From assembly GCF_041821065.1 (NCBI RefSeq), contig NZ_JBGUAX010000018.1, forward strand, positions 1 through 36,484: a DNA stretch of 36,484 nt. Direction: 5' to 3'. Shown here piece by piece: positions 3,176 to 32,700 of the stretch; position 1 is the first letter of the stretch; every line of letters starts with the position of its first letter. The position numbers and the translations under genes are program-made. The DNA comes from Egicoccus sp. AB-alg2 (GTDB taxonomy: Bacteria; Actinomycetota; Nitriliruptoria; Nitriliruptorales; Nitriliruptoraceae). Under the pieces are notes generated by a model, which did not search any database, was not told the DNA's origin, and saw nothing but the letters and a program-made list of their open reading frames with translations.

Positions 3176-5410
3176 GTGGCGCTGACCGTTGGCGAGCTGA
3201 CGGCCTTCCTCACCCTCGACGACTCCGACTTCGACCGCGGGGTCGACAAAGCCGACTCGAAGTTCGGGAGCTTCGCCGCCGGCCTCGGCAAGGCCGCGCT
3301 GGCCGGCGTCGCCGTGGCCGGAGCTGCAGTCGCCGGATTCGCCGCCGTCGGGGTGAAGGAGTTCGCCTCGTTCGAGCGCGGCATGAACGAGGTCTTCACC
3401 CTCCTCCCCGGCGCGTCGGCCGACGCCATGGGGAAGATGGAGAAGGACGTCCGCAAGTTCGCGGTCGAGATGGGCGTCACCACCGACAAGGTCGTCCCTG
3501 CGCTCTACCAGTCGCTCTCTGCCGGTGTGCCGCCCGACAACGTGTTCGCGTTCCTCGAGGTGGCCCAGAAGGCCGCTGTCGGTGGCGTCACCCAACTCGA
3601 AACAGCGGTAGACGGGATCACGTCGGTCGTAAACGCCTACGGCGCCGAGGTCATGGACGCCGGCCGGGCCTCGGACCTGATGTTCACCGCCGTGAGGCTG
3701 GGCAAGACGAACTTCGAGGAGCTGTCCGGGTCGCTCTACAACGTCCTGCCCACCGCGAGCGCGCTCGGGGTGGGGTTCGAGGACATCACCGCCGCAATGG
3801 CGCAGATGACCGCGCAGGGTGTGCCGACCTCGGTGGCAACCACGCAGATGCGGCAGCTGCTGGTTGAGCTGTCGAAGGAGGGCGGCAAGGCGTCCGACTC
3901 GTTCAAGGAGATCGCCGGGGTCGGGTTCGCCGAGTTCATCGCCCAGGGCGGCAACGTCGCTGACGCGCTCGACATCATGCAGCAGGCGGCCGATAACAAC
4001 GGCGTCGCGTTGCAAGACATGTTCGGATCCGTGGAGGCCGGTAACGCCGCGCTCGCGCTCGCGTCCGACGGCACCGACGACTACCGGGCCGCCCTGGCCG
4101 AGATGGCCGAGTCTGCTGGCGCGACCGAGCAGGCGTACGACCAGATGAACCAGGGCCTGGAACGCGCCCGGGAACGCATCGGTGCGCTCTGGGGCGAGCT
4201 CAAGCTGCAGGTCGGCGAGCTCCTCGCCCCGTACATCCAGGCGGCGGCGGAGTCCATGATCGAGTCGATCATGTCGTTCGTGACCGGCTGGCAGCAGGGC
4301 GCGACCGAGGTCGGCCGCAACGTCAACGAGATCATCGGTGGCGCCCAGGCGATGGGATCTCAGGCTCGTGAGGCGTTCGACACGGTCAAGACCTGGTGGG
4401 ACGAGAACGGGCCCGTCATCCGTGAGCGGTTCCAGCAGGTGATGGACAAGTCCGTCGAGATGGGCCAGGCGCTCAAGGTGTGGTGGACCGAAACGGCCAA
4501 GCCTGCGGTCGACGAGTTCTTGGCCGTCATCAGCGAGCATTGGCCACGGATCGAGGGCATCTGGAACAACCTGGCCACGGTGGTCACCGCTGCGGGGGAC
4601 GTCATCAGCAATGTGCTCGAGCTGATGCGCCGCGAGCACGACGTCACGGCGGACACCGCAGACGCGGCCGCCGGCAGGACTGTCACGTCGTTCGAACGGC
4701 TGGTCGGTGCGGGCGAGTGGGCTTCGTCGAACCTGTCGACGTCGATGGAGGTCCTGGCCGGCGCTATTGATCGCGACTCGGACCGGGTGATTCGGGCGCT
4801 GCACAATGCCACGGACGGTGGGTTCACCCGGTTCACCACCGAGTCGGCACGGCAGATGGTGCTGTTCAAGCGGGACATCGAGGAGCGGGTCGGCGAGGTC
4901 GTCGGGTTCTTCCGTGCCCTGCCCGGCCGGATCGTGGCGGCGTTCGGCAATGCCGGCGATCTCCTGCGCGGGATCGGCCGACAGATCATCGACGGTCTCA
5001 CCGCCGGGATGCGTGATGCCTGGAGCAACGCGCGGGACTGGTTGTCCGGACTTGGCGGCCAGATCCGCAATCTGAAGGGCCCGATCGAGAAGGACCGGGT
5101 CCTGCTGACCGACATCGGGCGCGAGATCATCGGCGGTCTCGGCCGCGGTATGGAAGACGAGTGGCGGCAGGTTGAGCGGCTGCTGGGGACGATGACGGCG
5201 GAGATCCCGCTGACTGTGGACGCCGGCGCGGTCGCTGCGGCGGCAGGTGGACGGGTGCCAGGCGCGGTTCTCGGCGGCGAGCGGGTCATCGAGGTGCACC
5301 ACCACCAGCCCATCCATGTGACCGGCACCATGATGGACCCGGAGGGTGTGGTGCGGGCGCTGGAGACGGCGACTCGCCGATCCCGCCGCGAGTTCGGGCC
5401 GGTGGTATGA
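3176..5410 (+). CDS. Tail tape measure protein
   Basis: A 744-residue protein, the longest in the window, with a GTG start behind GAGGAGG. The N-terminus (VGELTAFLTLDDSDFDRGVD) and the region ~60-180 (FERGMNEVFTLLPGASADAM ... TAVDGITSVVNAYG) match the TP901-type tape measure core. A hydrophobic alanine/glycine segment lies near residues 40-60, and helical and amphipathic segments follow to the end, with PGRIVAAFGNAGDLLRGIG late. At roughly 1.5 angstrom per residue this predicts a tail of about 110 nm. The stop overlaps the next ATG. Confidence 0.93.
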   Translation: MALTVGELTAFLTLDDSDFDRGVDKADSKFGSFAAGLGKAALAGVAVAGAAVAGFAAVGVKEFASFERGMNEVFTLLPGASADAMGKMEKDVRKFAVEMGVTTDKVVPALYQSLSAGVPPDNVFAFLEVAQKAAVGGVTQLETAVDGITSVVNAYGAEVMDAGRASDLMFTAVRLGKTNFEELSGSLYNVLPTASALGVGFEDITAAMAQMTAQGVPTSVATTQMRQLLVELSKEGGKASDSFKEIAGVGFAEFIAQGGNVADALDIMQQAADNNGVALQDMFGSVEAGNAALALASDGTDDYRAALAEMAESAGATEQAYDQMNQGLERARERIGALWGELKLQVGELLAPYIQAAAESMIESIMSFVTGWQQGATEVGRNVNEIIGGAQAMGSQAREAFDTVKTWWDENGPVIRERFQQVMDKSVEMGQALKVWWTETAKPAVDEFLAVISEHWPRIEGIWNNLATVVTAAGDVISNVLELMRREHDVTADTADAAAGRTVTSFERLVGAGEWASSNLSTSMEVLAGAIDRDSDRVIRALHNATDGGFTRFTTESARQMVLFKRDIEERVGEVVGFFRALPGRIVAAFGNAGDLLRGIGRQIIDGLTAGMRDAWSNARDWLSGLGGQIRNLKGPIEKDRVLLTDIGREIIGGLGRGMEDEWRQVERLLGTMTAEIPLTVDAGAVAAAAGGRVPGAVLGGERVIEVHHHQPIHVTGTMMDPEGVVRALETATRRSRREFGPVV

Positions 5411-9621: not shown

Positions 9622-9737
9622 CGTCCTCCCTCGAACCGGGCGACGCCTACGACGACGTCCCCGTCGACGACACGGCCGAACCCGCGGACGCCAACTCCGA
9701 CCACGACGGCCCCGGCGCCGCCGAGGTCGACCGATGA
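9618..9737 (+). CDS. Tiny acidic protein between holin and endolysin
   Basis: A 39-residue ORF with a GTG start overlapping the holin stop (GTGA) and a stop overlapping the endolysin ATG. The product is almost entirely acidic (DAYDDVPVDDTAEPADANSD) with no hydrophobic segment. The double overlap and the lack of a gap argue for translational coupling that carries ribosomes into the lysin gene. It may serve mainly as a coupler. No function is recognised. Confidence 0.5.
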   Translation: MTSSLEPGDAYDDVPVDDTAEPADANSDHDGPGAAEVDR

Positions 9738-10522
9738 CCACCGCGACCCACGCAGGGTTCCTTTCTCGCGCCACCCTCGGGATGCGGCCACCGAAGTCGA
9801 TTTCGCGCAACATCGACGCCGCCCGCGGCGGCTGCGCCCTGCACTACGGCGGCGACAACGTCCCGATCGCCAGCCACGCCCAGTGCATTGCGACCTGGCT
9901 GTCCTGGCAGCGGTTCCACATGGACTCGCGAGGGTGGGCGGACCTCGCCTACACGCTCGGTGTGTGCCAGCACGGCTACGTGTTCGCCGGACGCGGCGCC
10001 GGCCTCCGCACCGCGGCGAACGGCAGCAACGACGGCAACCTGCGCTTCTACGCCATCGTATGGATCGGCGGTGCACGCCAGACCCCCACGGCCCTCGCGC
10101 TGGCCGCCATCGACTGGGCGATCGCCGAGCTACGTCGGCTGGGTGCCGGTGATCGTGTCGTGCGCCATGCCGATCTGAACTCCACCGGCTGCCCAGGCGA
10201 CCCGCTCGGCCGTCACGCGCGCCTGCGGGACCGGCAACCGATCCGCCAACAGTCGCAGGACGCAGTCCCACCGGCGACACCCATCGAGCAGGAGTACGAG
10301 ATGAAGCGTGGTGACCGCGGCGGCGACGTTCGCAAGATGCAGGAACGGCTCATCCAGCTAGGCCACTACACGGGTCAGCTCGACGGCGACTTCGGGCCGC
10401 AGACCGAGGCCGCGGTGCTCGCCTACCAGCAGGAACGACGCCTCGAGGTGACCGGCCGCGTGTCGCTCTGGACCGCCGTGGACCTACAGGCTCGTGCTCA
10501 CGCGCTGGGTAGCCACCGGTAG
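9734..10522 (+). CDS. Endolysin: amidase with peptidoglycan-binding domain
   Basis: A 262-residue protein. Residues ~25-160 carry the amidase_2/PGRP layout: a first zinc histidine in ALHYGGD (H37), GYVFAGRGAG near 81-90, and the second zinc pair in RHADLNSTGCPGD (H145, C153). Residues ~193-253 form a PG_binding_1 domain (GDRGGDVRKMQERLIQLGHY ... DGDFGPQTEAAVLAYQ). It cuts the N-acetylmuramoyl-L-alanine bond at lysis. No signal peptide is present, so export depends on the holin. Confidence 0.9.
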   Translation: MTTATHAGFLSRATLGMRPPKSISRNIDAARGGCALHYGGDNVPIASHAQCIATWLSWQRFHMDSRGWADLAYTLGVCQHGYVFAGRGAGLRTAANGSNDGNLRFYAIVWIGGARQTPTALALAAIDWAIAELRRLGAGDRVVRHADLNSTGCPGDPLGRHARLRDRQPIRQQSQDAVPPATPIEQEYEMKRGDRGGDVRKMQERLIQLGHYTGQLDGDFGPQTEAAVLAYQQERRLEVTGRVSLWTAVDLQARAHALGSHR

Positions 10523-11820: not shown

Positions 11821-11855
11821 GACGTTCGGCGTCAACCTGGCCGAACGTCTAGGGT
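11821..11855 (+). promoter_or_regulatory. Operator dyad and -10 element of the MBL gene
   Basis: GACGTTCGGC (11821-11830) and GCCGAACGTC (11840-11849) are perfect 10-base inverted half-sites with a nine-base spacer, so their centres are 19 bases (about two turns) apart. TAGGGT (11850-11855) follows at once and fits a TANNNT -10, which puts the dyad over the -35 zone. Transcription would start near 11862, leaving a ~43-base leader with RBS AGGGGGA. This indicates a regulated promoter; the regulator is not known. Confidence 0.5.
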
Positions 11856-11904
11856 GTCTGGCGCCGCGGGGGCCGCGGCGCCAACAGGGGAACAGGGGGA
11901 TCTT

Positions 11905-13695
11905 GTGCCACGACGTCTTGCCCTCATGCTTGCAATCGCCATGGTGGCCATGCTGCTGCCAGCCAACATGGCTGCCGCCGGCCCGGCCATCGTGGTCGGT
12001 GATCTCGAGGTCGTCTACCTCAATCACGGCAACGGCGACACGGCCGTCTACCGCGGCGCGTGCGGAGACGTGGGCATCGTCGACGTGAACGTCGGTGCAG
12101 ATGGCGCGGTGCTAGACCTGCTTGACCGGTGGGGCGCCCGCGACAAGGTCCGCTGGATCGCCGCATCGCACATGCATGCCGACCACATTGGCGGCATCCG
12201 CGCCGTCGCTGAAGCGACCGGCGCCACGATCGTCCACCGCGGCGCACCGGCGTACAACTCGCAGACCTACCGTGACCTGATGGCCTCCGCCGCCGGCCGC
12301 GAACACATCGTGGCCAGCGGCGACAGTTTCGACCTCTGCGACGGCACCTTCTTCGAAGTGCTGTGGTCCGGTTCGTCCAACGACACCGCCTCGTTCCCGA
12401 CCTCGGATGAGAACGCCCGCTCGATGTGTCTCAAGGTCGAACACTTCGAGTTCACCAAGGGCACCTGCGGCGACCTGCTGTCCGCCGGCGAAACGGCGCT
12501 CGCATCCACGCTTGGCCGCCTCGACGTCTGGAAGGTGTCCCACCACGGCTCCTCCACCTCCTCGCCCGCCAGCCTGATCGACACCATCCGTCCCGAAGCG
12601 GCGGTGCTCACCGTCGGCCGCAACAGCTACGGCCACCCGTCGTCGACCGTGGTCTCGCGCTACACCACCGCCGGCACCACGCTGTTCCAGACCGCCGACG
12701 CCACCGGCGCAGCGGTCGATGGCGACATCACCATCACCGCCGGCTTCGACGGCGACTTCTTCATCACGAGCTCGCAGGGCCGCACCTACACCTCCAGCGG
12801 CGTGCAGCCGCCCCAGCCGGTACCGGTGGGACCCGCGTGCGAAGGAACTCCCCGCAACCGTTTCCCTGACGTCACCTCGGGCAGCCACGCGTTCGCGATC
12901 GACTGCATCGGCTGGTGGGGCGTCACCCAAGGCAACCGCGACGGCACCTACAACCCGACCGGCACCGTCACTCGCGACCAGATGGCGTCGTTCGTGGCCC
13001 GCACCATCGAGCTTTCCGGCGGCACGTTGCCGAACTCACCGGCCAACCACTTCACCGACGACAACGGCAACGCCCACGAGCTGCGGATCAACCAGCTTGC
13101 CGAACTCGGTGTCGTCGGCGGAGTAGGTGGAGGCCGCTACGCGCCGGCACGCAACGTCACCCGCGCCCAGATGGCGACCTTCCTCGCCAACGCCTGGGAA
13201 GCCCGCACCGGCAGCCCGCTACCGGCCGGCCGCGACTTCTTCACCGACGTCGACGGCGACACCCATCAGGCCCGCATCAACGCCGTCGCCCAAGCCGGAT
13301 TGACCGGCGGAGCCGCGCCCGGAATCTACAACCCCGGTGGAGACGTGACCCGCGCACAAATGGGCACCTTCCTCGCGCGGTTCATGGCCAAGCTCGTCGC
13401 CGACGGGCACACCACACATCCGCCGGCGAACCCAGTTCCGATGCCGCCACCGCCGGCACCAGCGCCGCCGCCTCCGGCACCCGAACCGCCGGCCGACCCG
13501 GCACCGGGCTGCGTCAACATCAACACGGCGTCGACCGACGACCTGCAACGGATCATCCACATCGGACCTGACCGTGCCGCCGAGATCGTCAGGCTGCGGC
13601 CGTTCTCCCGTGTCGAGGACCTCGAGCGTGTCTCGGGCATCGGGCCCGCCCGCATCCGCGACATCATCAACCAAGGGGTGGCCTGCGTCAGCTGA
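11905..13695 (+). CDS. Secreted MBL-fold hydrolase with three SLH repeats and HhH domain
   Basis: 596 residues, GTG start five bases after AGGGGGA. A signal peptide covers residues 1-25 (RRLALMLAIAMVAMLLPANM, cut near AAA-GPA). The MBL domain (~27-300) has HMHADH (89-94), GD (189-190) and KVSHHGSS (210-217), the pattern of the ComEC-type metallo-beta-lactamase domain. Three SLH units follow (~319-372, 382-435, 445-498), then a Pro/Ala linker (~505-535) and a ComEA-like helix-hairpin-helix (CVNINTASTDDLQRI ... VSGIGPARIRDIIN). It should sit on the wall and act on DNA or a phosphodiester; the activity is inferred. It has its own regulated promoter and lies in the cargo slot. Confidence 0.85.
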   Translation: MPRRLALMLAIAMVAMLLPANMAAAGPAIVVGDLEVVYLNHGNGDTAVYRGACGDVGIVDVNVGADGAVLDLLDRWGARDKVRWIAASHMHADHIGGIRAVAEATGATIVHRGAPAYNSQTYRDLMASAAGREHIVASGDSFDLCDGTFFEVLWSGSSNDTASFPTSDENARSMCLKVEHFEFTKGTCGDLLSAGETALASTLGRLDVWKVSHHGSSTSSPASLIDTIRPEAAVLTVGRNSYGHPSSTVVSRYTTAGTTLFQTADATGAAVDGDITITAGFDGDFFITSSQGRTYTSSGVQPPQPVPVGPACEGTPRNRFPDVTSGSHAFAIDCIGWWGVTQGNRDGTYNPTGTVTRDQMASFVARTIELSGGTLPNSPANHFTDDNGNAHELRINQLAELGVVGGVGGGRYAPARNVTRAQMATFLANAWEARTGSPLPAGRDFFTDVDGDTHQARINAVAQAGLTGGAAPGIYNPGGDVTRAQMGTFLARFMAKLVADGHTTHPPANPVPMPPPPAPAPPPPAPEPPADPAPGCVNINTASTDDLQRIIHIGPDRAAEIVRLRPFSRVEDLERVSGIGPARIRDIINQGVACVS

Positions 13696-14001: not shown

Positions 14002-15381
14002 TCAGGCTCGCCACTCTACGACGATCCGGTCCGCGTCGAACCGATTGCGCCCCTTCACGGCAGCTCGGATCACGGCCCGGTCGATGACGGCTCCAACGGC
14101 GGCACGCTGAAACTCCAAGTCCAGCCCGTCGTCCCACCGAGCTCGTAGCTGCATGCCGCGGCCGACCCACGGGGCGGCCTGCCGGTTGCGGGTTGTCGCG
14201 GCGGCCGCGGCGCGCGCTTGCTCGAGCTGCTGGTCGATGGATGTACGGGCGGTCATCCACTCGCGACGGGAGATGCCGCCGTTCGCCCACATGCCGGCCA
14301 GGTCGTCGAGTCTGCCGATCAGCACCCGGATCCGGGCGGCGTGGTCGTCACCATCGTCGTCGGGTCGGCCGAGGGCTGAAGCGAGGTCGGGGGAGTCGAG
14401 CGCATCGCAAACCATGTCGGCGAGCAGCTGGTCGGTCGGGTCGGCCAAGATCACGGTGCCGTTGCACCCTTCCGGCTTGGGCGGGCAGGCGTAGCGGCGC
14501 CGGCCGTTGGTGGCGATCGATCCGCGCATCCGGCTGTCACAGTTGTGGCAGCGGAGGATGCCTGAGAGCAGGAAGGTCCGGCCGGCGTGGGGGACGGTTC
14601 GGGCAGGGTCGGTGAGGACGGTACGGAGCCGGTCGCAGGTGTCGACGTCGAGGATGGCCGGCCACACGCCATCAGCGACGATCTCGCCGCGATGTTCACG
14701 TTGGCCGCAGAGCCGCCGTTGCAGCAGCAGGTTCCGTAGCGTCTGCGCGGACCAGGGCCTGCCGGTGCTAGTGGTGAGGGACTGACGGTTCCAGTCGAGC
14801 ACGATCGACCGGATCGACTCGCCGGCCAGCACACGCGCGGCGGCGTCGACGATCATGTCGGCCTCGTGAGGGACGATGTCGGTCCACCCGTCGGTGAGCC
14901 CGAACGCCCGAGGTCCGCCGTGCTTGGGCCGTCCGGCCTTGGCGGACGCTGCCTTGACCGAGCGCAGCCGGAGGCTCATGGTGGCGGACTCGAGGCGGGC
15001 GAACGCGACGAGGATGCGGACGATCACGAGGCCGAGCTCGTTGGAGGTGTCGACGGGTTCGTTGACTGAGGCGAGGGTCGCGTCGTGGGTCTCGCAGATG
15101 GCCCAGAAGCGTTCGAACTCGGCGGGTGACCGTACGAGCCGGTCGAGCTTCCAGACGAGCACACCGTCGACCTGGCGGGATGCCAGAGCGGTCAGCATCG
15201 ACTCGTAGCCGGGGCGGGTGACCTTCCGGTACGCGGAGAGGTCGACGTCCTTGAAGACTTCGGCGACCGTCCAGCCCTTGGCGGCTGCGAACGCGCGGGC
15301 GTCAGCTTCCTGCCGTGCGGTGGCGGTTTCGGTGCCGTCGGCGTCCTTGGACAGGCGGGTGTAGATCGCGCAGCGTTTCAT
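14002..15381 (-). CDS. int: Large serine integrase
   Basis: 459 residues from MKRCAIYTRLSKDADG; the longer frame upstream is discarded because MKR.AIYTR is the usual beginning. The resolvase domain (~1-145) has the catalytic serine at YTRLS (S11) and the WKLDRLVR motif (77-84). The recombinase domain (~155-260) is followed by a zinc ribbon with C278, C281, C299 and C306, and a helical coil near 345-395. It integrates phage DNA by attP x attB recombination. The gene is transcribed leftward, with TAGGAT (minus strand, 15389-15394) seven bases before the ATG, so a leaderless start is plausible. Confidence 0.93.
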   Translation of the reverse strand: MKRCAIYTRLSKDADGTETATARQEADARAFAAAKGWTVAEVFKDVDLSAYRKVTRPGYESMLTALASRQVDGVLVWKLDRLVRSPAEFERFWAICETHDATLASVNEPVDTSNELGLVIVRILVAFARLESATMSLRLRSVKAASAKAGRPKHGGPRAFGLTDGWTDIVPHEADMIVDAAARVLAGESIRSIVLDWNRQSLTTSTGRPWSAQTLRNLLLQRRLCGQREHRGEIVADGVWPAILDVDTCDRLRTVLTDPARTVPHAGRTFLLSGILRCHNCDSRMRGSIATNGRRRYACPPKPEGCNGTVILADPTDQLLADMVCDALDSPDLASALGRPDDDGDDHAARIRVLIGRLDDLAGMWANGGISRREWMTARTSIDQQLEQARAAAAATTRNRQAAPWVGRGMQLRARWDDGLDLEFQRAAVGAVIDRAVIRAAVKGRNRFDADRIVVEWRA

Positions 15382-15466
15382 CGGGTAGATCCTACGGATC
15401 GGCTGGGACACGCCACGTGTGTTCTCCACAAGTTCACCGGCGTGAAGTTGACGCTTGCACACTAGG
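15382..15466. other. Candidate attP and integrase promoter region
   Basis: An 85-base gap upstream of the serine integrase, the usual place of attP. It holds the inverted repeat ACACG-CCA-CGTGT (15408-15420) and a minus-strand -10-like TAGGAT (15389-15394). Without the host attB the crossover dinucleotide cannot be fixed. Supported by position only. Confidence 0.35.
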
Positions 15467-15500
15467 TCGGGATGGCGGCCATGCGAGGCCGCCATCCCGA
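15467..15500 (-). terminator. Perfect 14-bp inverted repeat (hairpin)
   Basis: TCGGGATGGCGGCC (15467-15480) and its exact complement (15487-15500) are separated by six bases. It begins six bases beyond the stop codon of the minus-strand membrane protein and separates the immunity operon from the integrase. The stem is very stable but has no T-run. Termination or a recombination-related structure are both possible. Confidence 0.55.
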
Positions 15501-15506
15501 GCGGCA

Positions 15507-16403
15507 TCAGCCGGCTTCTGCAGTCCAGTTGCCGTCAGCCACGATCTCGAGTGCCAACGAGTCGGGAAGACGCACGGTCCCTTCGTAGCTTCCGATCTCG
15601 TTCACAAGCAGCTCCCGGCGTGAGCCGTAGGCCATCACGGCGAAGTTCGACGATCCGGAGTGCGTCAGCGCGAGCCGGCCGGACCCGGTGTCGACGAGCA
15701 GTACCTCGTCTCCGCTCCCCGAACTGGTCTCGCTGAGCGTTGGCTGTTCGAACAGCGTGGTGACGGTGATCGTCCATGGGCCGCTTGCGGTGATTTCGAG
15801 TTCGGTGGGATCGCCGGTGAAGTTGAGCGGCCGGACTCCCTGGTAGTTGCCGATCTCGTTGACGAGCAGGTCCCGCCCGCCCGTGTCGTCGTGGGCGACG
15901 ATCGCGAAGTTCGACGAGCCTTGGTGTTCGATCGTTGCGACCAGTGGCCAGTCTGAGACCTCGAGGTCGACGATGTCGTCGCCTGAGCCTTCGTAGACGG
16001 TCGGTTCGATCTCGGGCTCGGGCTCGGGTTCGGGCTCCGGCTCTGGCTCTGGCTCGGGTTCCGGTTCGGGCTCCGGCTCGGCTTGGTCGAGTTCGGTCGG
16101 TTCCCCGTCGTCCTCCGCGATCTCCTCCTGGACCTCCTCGGGATCCTCGGGGTCGGGCGCTTCCTCGGGCAGATCGTTATCGGTTTCCTCAGGGGCACTC
16201 GCTGTGCCGTCGGCTAGCTCTTCGGGGTCGCCGGCGAGAGCTCCGATCACGATGAGCACCACGAAGATGATCAGTGCGATGCCCCACCACCGTTTCCACC
16301 ACGGCTTCTTACCGGATGGCGGCGGCGCGCTGGGCTGGGCTGACTCCGTTGCTTGCCCACCGCCGGCCGGCGGCGGGGGAGGGTTGGATGGTTGGTCGCT
16401 CAC
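15507..16403 (-). CDS. Membrane-anchored protein with two beta repeats
   Basis: 298 residues, GTG start overlapping the ImmA-like stop. A Pro-rich cytoplasmic head (~1-35), a TM segment (~40-57: GIALIIFVVLIVIGALAG), an acidic stalk and a Glu-Pro repeat (~108-132, from tandem hexamers near 16010-16080) come first. Two ~75-residue beta repeats follow, each with GSSNFA(I/V) and LLVNEIG(N/S)Y(Q/E)G. The topology puts the repeats outside the membrane. As the third gene of the repressor operon it should be made during lysogeny, so a surface exclusion role is attractive but unproven. Confidence 0.75.
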   Translation of the reverse strand: MSDQPSNPPPPPAGGGQATESAQPSAPPPSGKKPWWKRWWGIALIIFVVLIVIGALAGDPEELADGTASAPEETDNDLPEEAPDPEDPEEVQEEIAEDDGEPTELDQAEPEPEPEPEPEPEPEPEPEPEPEIEPTVYEGSGDDIVDLEVSDWPLVATIEHQGSSNFAIVAHDDTGGRDLLVNEIGNYQGVRPLNFTGDPTELEITASGPWTITVTTLFEQPTLSETSSGSGDEVLLVDTGSGRLALTHSGSSNFAVMAYGSRRELLVNEIGSYEGTVRLPDSLALEIVADGNWTAEAG

Positions 16404-16846
16404 TGGTTGCCCCTTTCGAATCGGGTGAGGTTGTCGAGCGCGTCACAAGCGACCGGCCAGGTCACTTCGAACTCGCGCGCGACGTCGTCCGGGCACACCC
16501 CGTGCCCGAGATCTGCATGCAGGTCGCAGTACCGCTGAAGGTCGAGCGTGGGGACGAGCCGTTCAGCGGTGATTCGTGCGACGCGTTGTTCTTCGCGGAT
16601 CCGGTCTGGCCGGAACCGTGGGTGCTCGCCGCCGGCTGCTCCGCCGTCGCGCTGGTGATGTACGAGTTCGTGCGCGAGGGCGTCACGGCGTGCTGGACCG
16701 GTCAGGCGACGGTCGATGAGTACAACCGTGCCGTGGCGGTCCCGGTATCGCACAGCGCCCCCCGTGGCGACCGGCAGCCCGTCGACGTACTCGACGAGCA
16801 CATCAGGATGTTGCTGTTCGAACTCGCGGGCAGGGTCCCACGCCAT
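16400..16846 (-). CDS. ImmA/IrrE-type metallopeptidase
   Basis: 148 residues starting MAWDPAREFEQQHPDVLVEY, with RBS AAGGGG upstream. RRDALAHELVHHQRD carries HExxH (H59, E60, H63), the zinc-protease signature of the ImmA/IrrE (COG2856) group, and the C-terminal part is helical (CDLHADLGHGVCPDDVAREF). ImmA-type proteases cleave XRE repressors to induce mobile elements (known for ICEBs1). It follows the XRE gene by ~50 bases in the same operon. Cleavage of this repressor is inferred. Confidence 0.82.
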   Translation of the reverse strand: MAWDPAREFEQQHPDVLVEYVDGLPVATGGAVRYRDRHGTVVLIDRRLTGPARRDALAHELVHHQRDGGAAGGEHPRFRPDRIREEQRVARITAERLVPTLDLQRYCDLHADLGHGVCPDDVAREFEVTWPVACDALDNLTRFERGNQ

Positions 16847-16895: not shown

Positions 16896-17285
16896 CTATC
16901 TGTTGCGCAGCCGTCGGACCAGGTTGCGGACTGCTTCGCGGTCCTCCTCATCGAGTTCGGCGATGTCGCCGGCGAGCTGGTCGATCTCGTTGCTGGTGAA
17001 GTCGGTACGCGGCTTGGGTTGGGGCGGATGGATGAGGGCGGCAGGGTCGTGCTTGCCGCGTGCGTGCTGGTAGGCGATATCTGCCGGCCAGTCGAGCGCC
17101 TGGGCGATGGCGGGCATGGCTCGGGAGCTGGCGGGGTCGGTTTCGCCTCGTTCGAGGGCTCCGAGGGTGGTGGGGGAGACGCCGGCTTCGGCGGCCAGGC
17201 GTCGCTGGCTCCATTTGCGGGCGTTGCGGGCGAGGGTGATGGCACGTCCGAAGTCCTGCCACCTTGAGGTGTCGGTCATTGGCAT
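16896..17285 (-). CDS. XRE-family repressor (immunity)
   Basis: 129 residues from MPMTDTSRWQDFGRAITLAR; ATG 17279 is an alternative start, and the open frame further upstream lies in the operator region. Residues ~12-65 form an XRE helix-turn-helix (KWSQRRLAAEAGVSPTTLGA LERGETD region), and the C-terminal half has a helix rich in acidic residues (EIDQLAGDIAELDEEDREAV). It is transcribed leftward from the divergent region that holds the TGAYGCA boxes, and is followed by the protease. This is the phage's lysogeny repressor by position. Confidence 0.85.
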   Translation of the reverse strand: MPMTDTSRWQDFGRAITLARNARKWSQRRLAAEAGVSPTTLGALERGETDPASSRAMPAIAQALDWPADIAYQHARGKHDPAALIHPPQPKPRTDFTSNEIDQLAGDIAELDEEDREAVRNLVRRLRNR

Positions 17286-17321: not shown

Positions 17322-17531
17322 TGCGTCATATTGCGTCAGGGTATGCGGGTGGGCGACTGACAGCGATGTCTTTCCGCTGCTAGCGCCCCGTTTCGGCCTC
17401 TTTGGACGCCTGTCGCGCGACACCGCTGTTATTCGTTTTACCGCACAGCGATGTGCATCAGGCGCTCCTGTCGCGTTCTGATGCATGACGCCGGTTGACG
17501 CCGGTCCAAAGTGATGCAACGCTCCGATGCA
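17322..17531. promoter_or_regulatory. Operator array in the divergent immunity region
   Basis: Repeats of TGAYGCM: leftward-facing copies TGCGTCA at 17322-17328 and 17332-17338 (ten-base phase) and TGCATCA at 17454-17460; rightward-facing TGATGCA at 17479-17485, TGACGCC at 17486-17492 and 17496-17502 (ten-base phase), TGATGCA at 17512-17518, and a variant CGATGCA at 17525-17531. TTGACG (17495-17500) could be a -35 of the rightward promoter. They cluster near both gene starts, as expected for the repressor and the Cro-like protein. Confidence 0.6.
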
Positions 17532-17560
17532 ACAAACCGGAGCGACAGAACGGACCACCG

Positions 17561-17785
17561 GTGCGCATCAACCGACACGCCCTACGCGAGATCCGCGAAC
17601 GGTCCGGCCTCTCCGTGCCGGCCCTCGCCAAGGAAGCGGGCTGCCGTCACGGGACGCTCTACGACATCGAGAACGGCAACAAGGGCGCCTCTCCGGAGAT
17701 GGCTCTGAAGCTGGCTCGGGCGTTGAAGTGCCCGCTCGTCGCGCTGCTCGCGGACCCGGACGAGCACGTAGGGGAGGCGGCCTGA
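17561..17785 (+). CDS. Cro-like XRE helix-turn-helix protein
   Basis: 74 residues from GTG 17561 (VRINRHALREIRERSGLSVP); a TTG at 17495 would add 22 residues of operator sequence and is unlikely. A clear XRE fold: LREIRERSGLSVPALAKEAG, then HGTLYDIENGNKG and PEMALKLARALKCPLVALL. It is the first gene of the rightward early operon, divergent from the repressor, so it takes the Cro/early-switch place. TGATG overlap with the next gene. Confidence 0.82.
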   Translation: MRINRHALREIRERSGLSVPALAKEAGCRHGTLYDIENGNKGASPEMALKLARALKCPLVALLADPDEHVGEAA

Positions 17786-28836: not shown

Positions 28837-30117
28837 GTGAGCGTCGCCCCCCTTGTTGGGAAGCAACTCGCGTCCGTCCAGCATGCCACGGCACGCCTCA
28901 ACATCTGGGAAGGCTCCGTCCGCTCCGGCAAAACCATCGGATCCATCCTCGCCTGGCTCCGCTTCATCCGCACCGCACCGCCCGGCAACCTCCTGATGGC
29001 CGGCCGCACCGAACGCACCCTCGAACGCAACGTCGTCCACCCGATGCAAGACATGCTCGGCCGCAAACGTGTCCGGTTCGTCCGCGGCGCCGGTGAACTC
29101 TGGGTCTGCGGCCGACGGATCTACATCGCCGGAGCCAACGACGAACGGGCCCAGGAGAAGATCCGCGGCCTCACCCTCGTCGGCGCCTACGTCGACGAGG
29201 TGTCCACGGTCCCTGAGTCGTTCTGGTCGATGCTGCTCACCCGCCTATCGATCGACGGGGCACGGCTGTTCGGGACCACCAACCCGGACAACCCGCGGCA
29301 CTGGCTGCTGAAGGACTACCTCAACCGTGCGACGGTGACGATCGACCGTGACGGCCAGATCCTCGGTGGTGACGGCGCCGAGCTGCTCGACCTCGCCCGC
29401 TTCCGGTTCACCCTCCACGACAACCCCCACCTCCCTGCCGCGTACATCGCCAGCCTCGAGCGCGAGTTCGTCGGGCTGTGGTACCGGCGGTTCATCTTGG
29501 GCGAATGGGTTGCCGCCGAGGGCGCGATCTACGACATGCTCGACCTCGACGGCGACAGCTCCCACGTCGTCGACCAGCTGCCCGACGTTCACGACTGGTG
29601 GCTGACCGTCGACTACGGCACCACCAACCCGTTCGTCGCCCTCCTGATCGGCGAACACACGGACGGCCTGGTGGTCGCGCGGGAGTGGCGGTGGGATTCG
29701 AGGGCGCAGCGCCGTCAGCTCACCGACGGGGAGTACGCGACGAAGCTGCAGTCGTGGGTCGACGGCGGCGCCGACGGCCTGGCCATGCCGCCCGACGTCA
29801 GCAAGGTGTTCGTTGACCCGTCCGCAGCCAGCTTCATCCGGCAGCTGTACCGCGACGGCTGGTCAGGCGTCACCCCCGCCGACAACACCGTCGAGGACGG
29901 CATCCGCGAAACCTCATCGCTGCTCGCGGCGAGGCGGCTGACGATCCACCGGTCCTGCTCGGGACTGCTCGACGAGATGGCCGGCTACAGCTGGGACCCC
30001 AAGGCACAAGACCGCGGCGAAGACGCGCCGCTGAAGCAGGACGACCACGGCCCCGACGCCCTGCGTTACGGGGTGCGGATGCTGCGGCGGGTCTGGCGCC
30101 GCTGGCTCGATAGCTGA
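28837..30117 (+). CDS. Terminase large subunit
   Basis: 426 residues, GTG start. The ATPase domain has Walker A GSVRSGKT (26-33) and Walker B AYVDEVSTVPE, then FGTTNPDNPRHWL as coupling motif. The nuclease domain has WWLTVDYGTTNPFVALLIG, KVFVDPSAASFI and DDHGPDALRYGVRM with the expected acidic residues. It drives and cuts DNA at the portal. No RBS is evident upstream. It ends three bases before the stop of a convergent minus-strand gene. Confidence 0.93.
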   Translation: MSVAPLVGKQLASVQHATARLNIWEGSVRSGKTIGSILAWLRFIRTAPPGNLLMAGRTERTLERNVVHPMQDMLGRKRVRFVRGAGELWVCGRRIYIAGANDERAQEKIRGLTLVGAYVDEVSTVPESFWSMLLTRLSIDGARLFGTTNPDNPRHWLLKDYLNRATVTIDRDGQILGGDGAELLDLARFRFTLHDNPHLPAAYIASLEREFVGLWYRRFILGEWVAAEGAIYDMLDLDGDSSHVVDQLPDVHDWWLTVDYGTTNPFVALLIGEHTDGLVVAREWRWDSRAQRRQLTDGEYATKLQSWVDGGADGLAMPPDVSKVFVDPSAASFIRQLYRDGWSGVTPADNTVEDGIRETSSLLAARRLTIHRSCSGLLDEMAGYSWDPKAQDRGEDAPLKQDDHGPDALRYGVRMLRRVWRRWLDS

Positions 30118-30952: not shown

Positions 30953-31138
30953 ATGACCACCACCCGCGCGCTCCGCCGCCTCGCCATTGAAGCGCTGGCC
31001 GGCAAGACCCTCGTCCAGGCCGGCCTCGCCGCGCCACCGCCACGGTTCCGCCCCGTCGCCGATCCGGTCGTGGAGCTGACCGCCGACGGGTGGCTGGCGT
31101 CCGGGCGTGACGCCGAAGACGACGGGCTGGTTCGCTGA
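30953..31138 (+). CDS. Small protein before the portal gene, 61 aa
   Basis: Starts MTTTRALRRLAIEALAGKTL, ATG six bases after the GAGACT box with no RBS. A helical head and a proline-rich middle (AAPPPRFRPVADP). Its stop overlaps the portal ATG, so it is coupled to the portal gene and may act as a leader peptide gene. The family is unknown. Confidence 0.6.
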   Translation: MTTTRALRRLAIEALAGKTLVQAGLAAPPPRFRPVADPVVELTADGWLASGRDAEDDGLVR

Positions 31139-32700
31139 TGCCGCTTCCCGAAGACCCCAAGGCCCCGTGGCCCCCCAAGGCAATGAAGCCCATCCTGCGT
31201 GACATGCAGGAAGCCGACGCCTGGTTCTCAGGTGACGTTGATCGGCTCCGCAACTTCTACGGCACCACCGGGACCGGCACGTCCTCCCACCTCCCCGGCT
31301 TCGCCGGAGGTGCACCCGGCAAGGTCCGGTTCTGGCCACGCCGTGCTGCCGACCGGGCCCCCAACCGCACCCAAATCCATGTCCCCATTGCCGCAGACAT
31401 CGCGTCCACCTCCGCTGATCTGCTGTTCTCCGAGCAGCTCCGGTTTCCGATCCCTGGCGCTGCGGACGGCGGCAACCGTGCCGCGTCCGTGACGCAGGAC
31501 CGCCTCGACGTCCTCGTCGACGAAGGCGGGATCCTCACCTCACTGATCGAAGCTGCCGAGGTCTGCTCGGCCCTCGGCGGCGTCTACATCCGGGCCGTGT
31601 GGGACGACCGCGACCGGCTCCCGATGCCCACGTTGACCGTCGTCCATGCCGATGCTGCGTTCCCTGAGTGGCGGTGGGGCCGCCTCTCCACCGTGACGTT
31701 CTGGACCGTCCTCCTCGACGAAAACGGCAAGGTATGGCGGCACCTCGAACGTCACGAACCTGGTGTCATCCTCCACGGCCTCTACGTCGGCGAACGTGAC
31801 ACCCTCGGCAAGCGCGAGGCCATGTCCGCGCATCCGCACACCGAGGCGCTCCTGGACGGCGACGACCGCACCTACGACGAGTCGACGAAGATCCTCACCG
31901 TCGAGCTGCCCGACTCGCTCCGCAACGAGCTGACCGTCCGTTACGTCCCCAACGTCCGCCCGAACCGCCGTCACCGGCACACGCTGCACGGCCGGTCCGA
32001 CTACGACGGCACCTACAGCCTGATGGACGCCCTCGACGAGACGTGGTCGTCGTGGATGCGTGACCTCCGGCTCGGTCAGGCCCGTGTGGTCGTGTCCCAG
32101 GACGCGCTGACCCCGAAGGGCCGCGGCAAAGGGGCCACGCTCGACATCGACCAAGAGGTCTTCACCGGCCTCGACATGGAACCCACCGTCGACGGCAAGC
32201 CGATGATCGAGCAGATCCAGTTCGCCATCCGCACCAAAGACCACGCCGACACCGCGTTCGCGCTCGTCGAACGGATCGTCTCGACCGCCGGCTACTCGCC
32301 CCAGTCCTTCGGGCTACACATCGAAGGCAGAGCCGAGTCCGGGTCGGCCCTACGCATCCGTGAGGGAAAGACGCTCAGGACCGGCGGCCGCAAGCAACGC
32401 TACTGGACCCCCGAGACCGTGGACCTGCTCGAGGTGCTCCTGGTGCTGGACCGTGACGTGTACGGCTCGCCGGTAGAGCCGGACCGTCCCGCGATCCGGT
32501 GGGGCGACTCGCTGGTCGATGATCCGCAGGAGCAGGCGACCACGGTCGAGATGCTGCGCCGCGCTCAGGCAGCGTCGATCCGGACGCGGGTGCAGATGGT
32601 GCAGCCGGAGCTCGAGGGGCAGGCGCTCGAGGACGAGGTGGCCCGCATCCAGGCGGAAGAGGGCGTGACAGTGACGGACCCGACCGGGTTTGGTGACTGA
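31138..32700 (+). CDS. Portal protein
   Basis: 520 residues. Starts MPLPEDPKAPWPPKAMKPIL; contains DIASTSADLLFSEQLRFPIP, the typical portal segment where the wing begins, a long beta/alpha body, the stem-like stretch TKDHADTAFALVERIVSTAG YSPQSFGL, and late SALRIREGKTLRTGGRKQRY WTPE. It matches actinophage SPP1-type portals in size and in these segments. It forms the ring at the capsid vertex to which terminase and connector bind. Overlaps the small gene upstream. Confidence 0.9.
   Translation: MPLPEDPKAPWPPKAMKPILRDMQEADAWFSGDVDRLRNFYGTTGTGTSSHLPGFAGGAPGKVRFWPRRAADRAPNRTQIHVPIAADIASTSADLLFSEQLRFPIPGAADGGNRAASVTQDRLDVLVDEGGILTSLIEAAEVCSALGGVYIRAVWDDRDRLPMPTLTVVHADAAFPEWRWGRLSTVTFWTVLLDENGKVWRHLERHEPGVILHGLYVGERDTLGKREAMSAHPHTEALLDGDDRTYDESTKILTVELPDSLRNELTVRYVPNVRPNRRHRHTLHGRSDYDGTYSLMDALDETWSSWMRDLRLGQARVVVSQDALTPKGRGKGATLDIDQEVFTGLDMEPTVDGKPMIEQIQFAIRTKDHADTAFALVERIVSTAGYSPQSFGLHIEGRAESGSALRIREGKTLRTGGRKQRYWTPETVDLLEVLLVLDRDVYGSPVEPDRPAIRWGDSLVDDPQEQATTVEMLRRAQAASIRTRVQMVQPELEGQALEDEVARIQAEEGVTVTDPTGFGD

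What the first reader, a model, noticed from the sequence alone, without database searches (positions are those of the whole stretch)
15507..16846. Repressor-ImmA operon extended by a surface-repeat membrane protein
The third gene of the lysogeny operon, overlapping ImmA, encodes a TM protein with a Glu-Pro stalk and two external beta repeats. Constant expression in the lysogen would suit superinfection exclusion. The Glu-Pro stalk is coded by tandem hexamers (16010-16080) that can change stalk length without frameshift.
Basis: inference. Interest (0 to 1): 0.5.

Follow-up and report, generated by a model that had tools for sequence, protein, structure and literature searches.

The report
Stalked surface protein in phage lysogeny operon
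A temperate phage of an actinobacterium carries, as the last gene of the operon that keeps it dormant, a protein that should stick out of its host's surface on a long acidic stalk; by its position and build it looks like a device that keeps rival phages out, but that function is untested.

Summary
Repressor, ImmA and a 298-residue membrane protein are consecutive minus-strand genes; the last two overlap by 4 bp, and a perfect 14-bp hairpin follows. The protein has a basic N-terminus, one transmembrane helix, an 81-residue acidic stalk and two β-repeats (45% identical; confident all-β AlphaFold model). The window is a temperate siphovirus. The same phage is integrated in a sister species; its attP lies between this gene and the serine integrase, so in the lysogen the gene ends the prophage. 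The β-pair family is widespread on chromosomes, mostly behind an N-terminal membrane segment. A related prophage has an unrelated lipoprotein in the same slot. Gene order and build (anchor, spacer, repeats) match Ltp of phage TP-J34, a proven superinfection-exclusion lipoprotein, but the protein lacks an Ltp sequence match and a lipid anchor. Superinfection exclusion is the best reading (about 45%); other surface conversion is the main rival. The pattern is not general: most other ImmA neighbours read are not surface proteins. Hexamer slippage is not supported: neighbouring units are no more alike than shuffled codons, and both phage copies have the same stalk.

The parts
16896..17279 (-). Cro/CI-type repressor, 127 aa, first gene of the lysogeny operon
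   Evidence: HTH_3 E 1.1e-9; PHROG transcriptional regulators
16400..16846 (-). ImmA-like metalloprotease, 148 aa, HELVH intact
   Evidence: translation; PHROG 87 E 3.8e-9; Pfam Peptidase_M78 E 3.5e-4, below cut-off
15507..16403 (-). anchored surface protein, 298 aa, third and last gene of the lysogeny operon
   Evidence: no Pfam or NCBIfam family above its cut-off; PHROG matches weak, best E 6.7e-4 over the helix and stalk start
16230..16289 (-). transmembrane helix (about residues 39-58), preceded by KKPWWKRWW
   Evidence: hydropathy 2.77; charges
15990..16229 (-). acidic stalk, residues 59-138, including the Glu-Pro run
   Evidence: 37 D/E and 0 K/R in residues 59-139
16011..16081 (-). period-6 array coding 11 Glu-Pro units
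   Evidence: TRF; codon shuffle test
15759..15989 (-). beta-repeat 1
   Evidence: 45% identical to repeat 2, E 2e-16; model
15510..15722 (-). beta-repeat 2
15467..15500 (-). perfect 14-bp inverted repeat, 6-base loop, starting 6 bp after the stop: likely end of the lysogeny transcript (no U tract)
   Evidence: dG -37.9, z -5.6; the terminator scan, which asks for a T run, does not list it
15425..15444 (.). attP core
   Evidence: both junctions of the integrated copy in G002
14002..15381 (-). large serine integrase, 459 aa; parted from the operon on integration
   Evidence: Resolvase, Recombinase and zinc ribbon domains; PHROG 95 E 6.9e-88
17495..17785 (+). divergent Cro-like HTH gene (TTG at 17495 or GTG at 17561)
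   Evidence: ORF and translation; HTH judged by eye, no family scan made

Best explanation
The gene makes a prophage-expressed envelope protein. Shown from sequence: it is the third of three close, same-strand genes (repressor, ImmA, this gene), is followed by a hairpin just before attP, and encodes a one-helix anchor, a long acidic spacer and two tandem beta-domains. Inferred: the three genes are one transcript made as long as the repressor is made; the stalk (stiff where it is Glu-Pro) carries the beta-domains out through the cell wall; there they meet the tail tip, tape measure or entry site of an incoming phage and stop DNA entry, as Ltp does and CwpV is thought to do. It would be a functional analogue of Ltp with unrelated sequence, probably taken from a surface protein of the host lineage.
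For: Gene order int, surface protein, metalloproteinase, repressor, divergent cro equals that of TP-J34 and TP-778 (PMC3952083 table passages). Ltp has the same three units: anchor, low-complexity spacer, repeat domain (Introduction read). CwpV, a host surface repeat protein, blocks infection after adsorption and needs its repeats (PMC4737114 abstract and passages). In the related prophage of G004 the same slot, overlapping the ImmA stop by 1 bp, holds an unrelated 127-aa lipoprotein. In G220 a 182-aa protein with one strong hydrophobic segment (2.28) sits between an ImmA-like gene and an integrase. Gordonia phage CarolAnn has defence genes co-transcribed with the repressor (PMC6426606 passages). 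The beta-pair matches once in G000 and once in G002, both inside the phage, so the phage brings it. Operon layout.
Against: No expression or infection data. No Ltp family listed in the Pfam scan at E up to 1. PADLOC gives only PD-T4-6, over residues 37-135, and the PHROG superinfection-exclusion families 4980 and 8545 match only residues 30-94 and 29-69; these look compositional. Relatives are mostly chromosomal: of 77 loci, none has a tblastn match (E up to 1e-4) to this phage's ImmA, repressor or serine integrase or to G004's serine integrase in the stretch held; 2 (L053, L069) match a tyrosine integrase. So the family as a whole is not a lysogeny-operon family. Of 80 phage records with a matching ImmA I viewed 4; in all 4 the next gene is a DUF3263 gene, an HTH gene or the integrase. 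Of 9 other ImmA relatives (8, G004), 2 have an anchored protein exactly in the slot and 7 do not.
Confidence: 0.45

Rival explanations
1. Lysogenic conversion of another kind: the beta-domains bind wall polymer, a surface or neighbour cells and change adhesion, aggregation or envelope strength of the lysogen; any effect on phages is incidental.
For: Same build is common in chromosomes of Actinomycetota, Bacilli, Chloroflexi and archaea. The beta-pair is fused to a cell-wall-binding-repeat-like protein (L026, recognised by eye) and lies under polysaccharide deacetylase annotations in 5 haloarchaeal plasmid records. Weak profile hints: MpAFP adhesin region II E 0.0017 and ColG collagen-binding domain E 0.44, PPC in 2 of 45 members; CBM29 is among the fold neighbours.
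Against: Does not by itself explain why the gene sits in the lysogeny operon right behind ImmA, nor the unrelated lipoprotein in the same place in G004.
Confidence: 0.3
2. Passenger: a host surface gene picked up by the phage and kept only because it does no harm at the end of the operon.
For: The closest relatives found, 52-54% identical in the beta-pair, are proteins of the same class.
Against: Intact frame, good ribosome site, 4-bp overlap and an adjoining hairpin suggest selection for co-expression.
Confidence: 0.15
3. Envelope sensor: the surface protein passes a signal across the membrane to ImmA, which then cuts the repressor; the pair is an induction switch.
For: Overlap with ImmA; cytoplasmic N-terminal tail of about 37 residues.
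Against: No known signalling domain; the tail is Pro-rich low complexity; the occupant of the slot in G004 is a lipoprotein, which would have no cytoplasmic part.
Confidence: 0.08

Closest known systems
Ltp superinfection-exclusion lipoprotein of Streptococcus thermophilus phages TP-J34 and TP-778 (PMC3952083)
   Same: Same slot and gene order in the lysogeny module; anchor, low-complexity spacer and repeated outer domain; prophage gene.
   Different: Here a transmembrane helix instead of a lipid, a Glu-Pro/acidic instead of Ser-rich spacer, all-beta repeats; no sequence match. Exclusion untested.
CwpV of Clostridioides difficile (PMC4737114)
   Same: Surface protein with tandem repeats; shows that such repeats can block infection after adsorption.
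   Different: Chromosomal, phase-variable, wall-anchored, 4-9 repeats of 79-120 residues; homology not tested.
Unnamed surface proteins with the same C-terminal beta-pair (74 genome loci)
   Same: Homologous beta-pair; 65 of 77 loci (genome and viral) have a hydrophobic segment or lipobox before it, often with a low-complexity spacer.
   Different: None found in a lysogeny operon (within the limits stated); some carry DUF2510 or are annotated TM2.
CarolAnn gp43/gp44 and lambda cI-rexAB (PMC6426606 passages)
   Same: Membrane protein gene co-transcribed with the repressor; defends the lysogen.
   Different: Four-helix membrane protein with a second protein; modelled as abortive infection, not surface exclusion.

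Membership tests
Ltp-type superinfection-exclusion lipoproteins | Sequence match to the Ltp repeat domain | tested here: not met
   Pfam scan at E up to 1 lists no such family; that Pfam holds an Ltp model is recalled
Ltp-type superinfection-exclusion lipoproteins | Lipid anchor (lipobox) | tested here: not met
   No lipobox found by pattern; a transmembrane helix instead
Ltp-type superinfection-exclusion lipoproteins | Gene between integrase and metalloproteinase-repressor pair in the lysogeny module | tested here: met
   against PMC3952083 tables
Ltp-type superinfection-exclusion lipoproteins | Anchor, low-complexity spacer, repeat domain | tested here: met
   compare PMC3952083 Introduction
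Superinfection-exclusion proteins in general | Made in the lysogen and blocks entry of other phages | not testable with these tools
   needs expression and infection assays
Stalked beta-pair surface proteins (unnamed) | Homologous C-terminal beta-pair behind an N-terminal membrane segment | tested here: met
   52-54% identity to a same-class protein; architecture
PPC / collagen-binding-like beta-sandwich domains | Profile or fold match clearly above background | tested here: inconclusive
   PPC matched 2 of 45 members, best E 5.9e-4, none for the window's own; ColG domain E 0.44; fold rows tied near Z 7-9

The most novel reading that the evidence does not exclude
The place right behind ImmA in lysogeny operons of Gram-positive phages is an exchange site for unrelated surface-anchored exclusion proteins, each built as anchor, spacer and outer domain: a beta-domain pair here, a small lipoprotein in G004, a one-helix protein in G220, and Ltp in streptococcal phages. 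Phages would recruit common host surface proteins into the lysogeny transcript to shut out rivals.
Probability: 0.3. Interest if true: 0.6.

Novelty: new variant of a known kind. Interest (0 to 1): 0.42.

Why it matters
If it excludes phages, it shows that the Ltp solution (an anchored repeat protein made with the repressor) was reached again with unrelated sequence, in a group of bacteria for which the one search made here (Nitriliruptor with prophage) listed three papers, none on its phages by title. It would also give a widespread unnamed surface domain family its first testable function, and a simple rule for finding such proteins: read the gene after ImmA.

Tried and rejected
Hexamer slippage as a length switch: unsupported; adjacent units are no more alike than shuffled codons and the gene does not differ between the two copies.

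PHROG 4980/8545 'superinfection exclusion', PADLOC PD-T4-6 and other weak matches (PHROG 197, Pfam Trypan_PARP, several NCBIfam models): set aside as compositional; they cover mainly the helix and the acidic or Glu-Pro stretch and are far below cut-off where one exists.

Fold search: Foldseek against PDB gave poor superpositions (highest query TM 0.46 among the 50 rows shown); VIA-align best Z 8.9 to the SIDT1 outer domain, then many tied beta-folds; the viral library gave rows of similarly low query TM. No function is read from these.

16 gave no ORF with the protease motif, L136 (G220) among them, whose copy lacks HExxH. Many of the rest look chromosomal by eye, not tested, so I count this survey neither for nor against; two (L152, L154) have a small membrane protein 2-3 bp behind the ImmA-like ORF. 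A viral-contig search with the ImmA alignment confirmed no relative; a single-protein viral search with the beta-pair confirmed none, the profile found 3. Integrase relatives in the class: 8 of 66 genomes; of the six loci given, three were read and show no ImmA by eye in the stretch held. No stable hairpin stands out after the G004 lipoprotein gene (z 0.66). The promoter scan found nothing. Papers listed but not opened: those and 99 other than PMC6426606 and PMC7542560; of PMC7542560 (Butters) only the outline was seen.

Full report
What the window is. The window is all of contig C18 of its assembly (36,484 bp). The class is probably Nitriliruptoria: same-class genomes G041 and G043 have contigs of the same length and match position as records titled Nitriliruptoria bacterium and Egibacter sp. 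(inference). The window is a temperate siphovirus: tape measure 3176-5410, endolysin 9734-10522, terminase 28837-30117, portal 31138-32700, head genes and scaffold. The same phage sits in the chromosome of a second species, G002:C6 346431-383039. One differing base was found in each of the two aligned pieces, at 15428 and 15441, both in the att core. There the contig ends 36484 and 1 are joined by 105 bp, so the phage genome is a circle of about 36.6 kb. The att core is 15425-15444.

The finding. The third gene overlaps ImmA by 4 bp, has a good ribosome site (AAAGGGG), and is followed 6 bp after its stop by a perfect 14-bp inverted repeat (dG -37.9, z -5.6). The hairpin lacks the T run that the terminator scan asks for; I read it as the end of the lysogeny transcript (inference). 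Next come attP and then the serine integrase. On integration the integrase and the operon end up at opposite ends of the prophage.

The protein. N-terminal 37 residues, Pro-rich, basic at the end; helix about 39-58; residues 59-139 with 37 acidic and no basic residues; two beta-repeats to the C-terminus. AlphaFold on 45 sequences gives pLDDT 97.0 and pTM 0.90, nearly all strands. The nearest solved folds are many tied beta-rows, best Z 8.9, rmsd 4.7 over 152 residues to the SIDT1 outer domain; nothing functional follows. Sequence profiles hint weakly at an adhesin repeat of MpAFP (E 0.0017) and a collagen-binding domain (E 0.44), and at PPC in 2 of 45 members. No named family fits.

The family. 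A four-sequence profile found 74 loci in one-genome-per-species contigs: Actinomycetota, Bacilli, Chloroflexi, an acidobacterium and archaea, and 3 viral contigs. Plasmid search: 14 records, Arthrobacter and haloarchaea. Phage records: 3, among them haloarchaeal virus HJTV-4. A crude script found a hydrophobic segment or lipobox before the beta-pair in 65 of 77 loci (48 with one or two segments, 7 with three or more, 10 lipobox-like), 10 with none and 2 cut by the contig end. Some of the 10 look like lipoproteins under my threshold or wrong frames. In most of these loci the beta-pair is C-terminal, and the spacer differs in make-up: Glu-Pro-Thr, Ser-Pro, poly-Thr, Asp/Glu. Among the window's genome and 60 relatives, 9 of 61 have a match; in G000 and G002 the phage copy is the only one. 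So the gene looks like a host-lineage surface gene adopted by the phage, and viruses of other hosts carry relatives too.

The slot. ImmA relatives: 4 of 66 class genomes and 9 of 396 phylum genomes. Leaving out the window and G002 and adding G004, there are nine places. G004 has a 127-aa lipoprotein directly after ImmA, overlapping by 1 bp. G220 has a 182-aa protein with one strong hydrophobic segment between its ImmA-like gene and an integrase (this ImmA-like protein lacks HExxH). G404 has a lipoprotein-like and a DUF2510-helix protein on the same strand before ImmA, not after it. The other six show no anchored protein in the slot. Of the 80 phage records with a matching ImmA, I viewed four, from Gordonia and Mycobacterium phages; there the next gene is DUF3263, an HTH gene or an integrase. 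So the pattern recurs but is not general in this sample.

Mechanism. The same gene order and three-part build belong to Ltp of TP-J34, a lipoprotein reported to stop DNA injection (PMC3952083: abstract, Introduction and passages with the gene tables). Escape mutants point to the tape measure protein, without direct proof of contact (PMC4737114 passages). CwpV shows that a surface repeat protein of another kind can protect after adsorption. CarolAnn shows in an actinophage that genes co-transcribed with the repressor defend lysogens. I therefore rate superinfection exclusion most likely, at 0.45; surface conversion 0.3; passenger 0.15; sensor for ImmA 0.08. Steps shown from sequence: gene layout, anchor, stalk, repeats, position at the prophage end. 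Steps inferred: single transcript, expression in the lysogen, orientation, exclusion.

The stalk. The hexamer array is real, but its DNA shows no recent copying: 2 of 10 neighbours identical, 1.95 expected from shuffled codons. Both copies of the phage have the same stalk. A (Glu-Pro)n run kept for its protein is enough to explain it.

Side finding. Integration in G002 splits a CpaF-like (Tad pilus) ATPase gene near residue 177-180, before the Walker A motif at residue 217 of the intact G000 protein; the first part runs into a phage stop within a few codons. Other ATPase paralogues in G002 are at most 36% identical. G000 keeps the gene intact although it carries the phage as its own contig, so in G000 the phage was outside the chromosome, or the culture was mixed, or the assembly misleads. 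If other phages of these hosts use Tad pili, integration alone would give resistance; this is speculation.

Noticed in passing
window 15425-15444; G002:C6 346431 and 383039: attP lies between the surface gene and the serine integrase; attB is inside a CpaF-like Tad-pilus ATPase gene, which the prophage splits in G002. Lysogens should lack this ATPase. A search for papers with four of five terms (prophage, cpaF, attB, integrase, Tad pilus) listed two, neither on this subject by title and abstract start; a looser one found 269, of which 8 were listed and none opened for this.
   Followed up: partly
window 1-36484 and G002:C6 346431-383039: The phage is identical outside the att core in two species whose attB flanks are about 83-86% alike: very recent transfer, or shared handling of the cultures. 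G000 has an empty site and the phage as a separate, nearly closed contig.
   Followed up: partly
window 11854-13695 (+): Phage-encoded 613-aa protein with metallo-beta-lactamase-like, S-layer homology and helix-hairpin-helix domains, between the endolysin and the integrase; an unusual mix, perhaps a secreted nuclease shown on the surface (guess).
   Followed up: no
L118 6680-7528, L117 6683-7525, L021 4779-5462: Two viral contigs (haloarchaeal by eye) and haloarchaeal virus HJTV-4 carry proteins with the same beta-pair; those of L117 and L118 have a membrane segment and a poly-Thr stalk, that of HJTV-4 looks like a lipoprotein.
   Followed up: partly
G004:C13 54991-58484 (L127): Related prophage whose serine integrase points away from its lysogeny operon and which seems to have entered a Mg-chelatase/ComM-like gene (read by eye from the truncated frame).
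   Followed up: no
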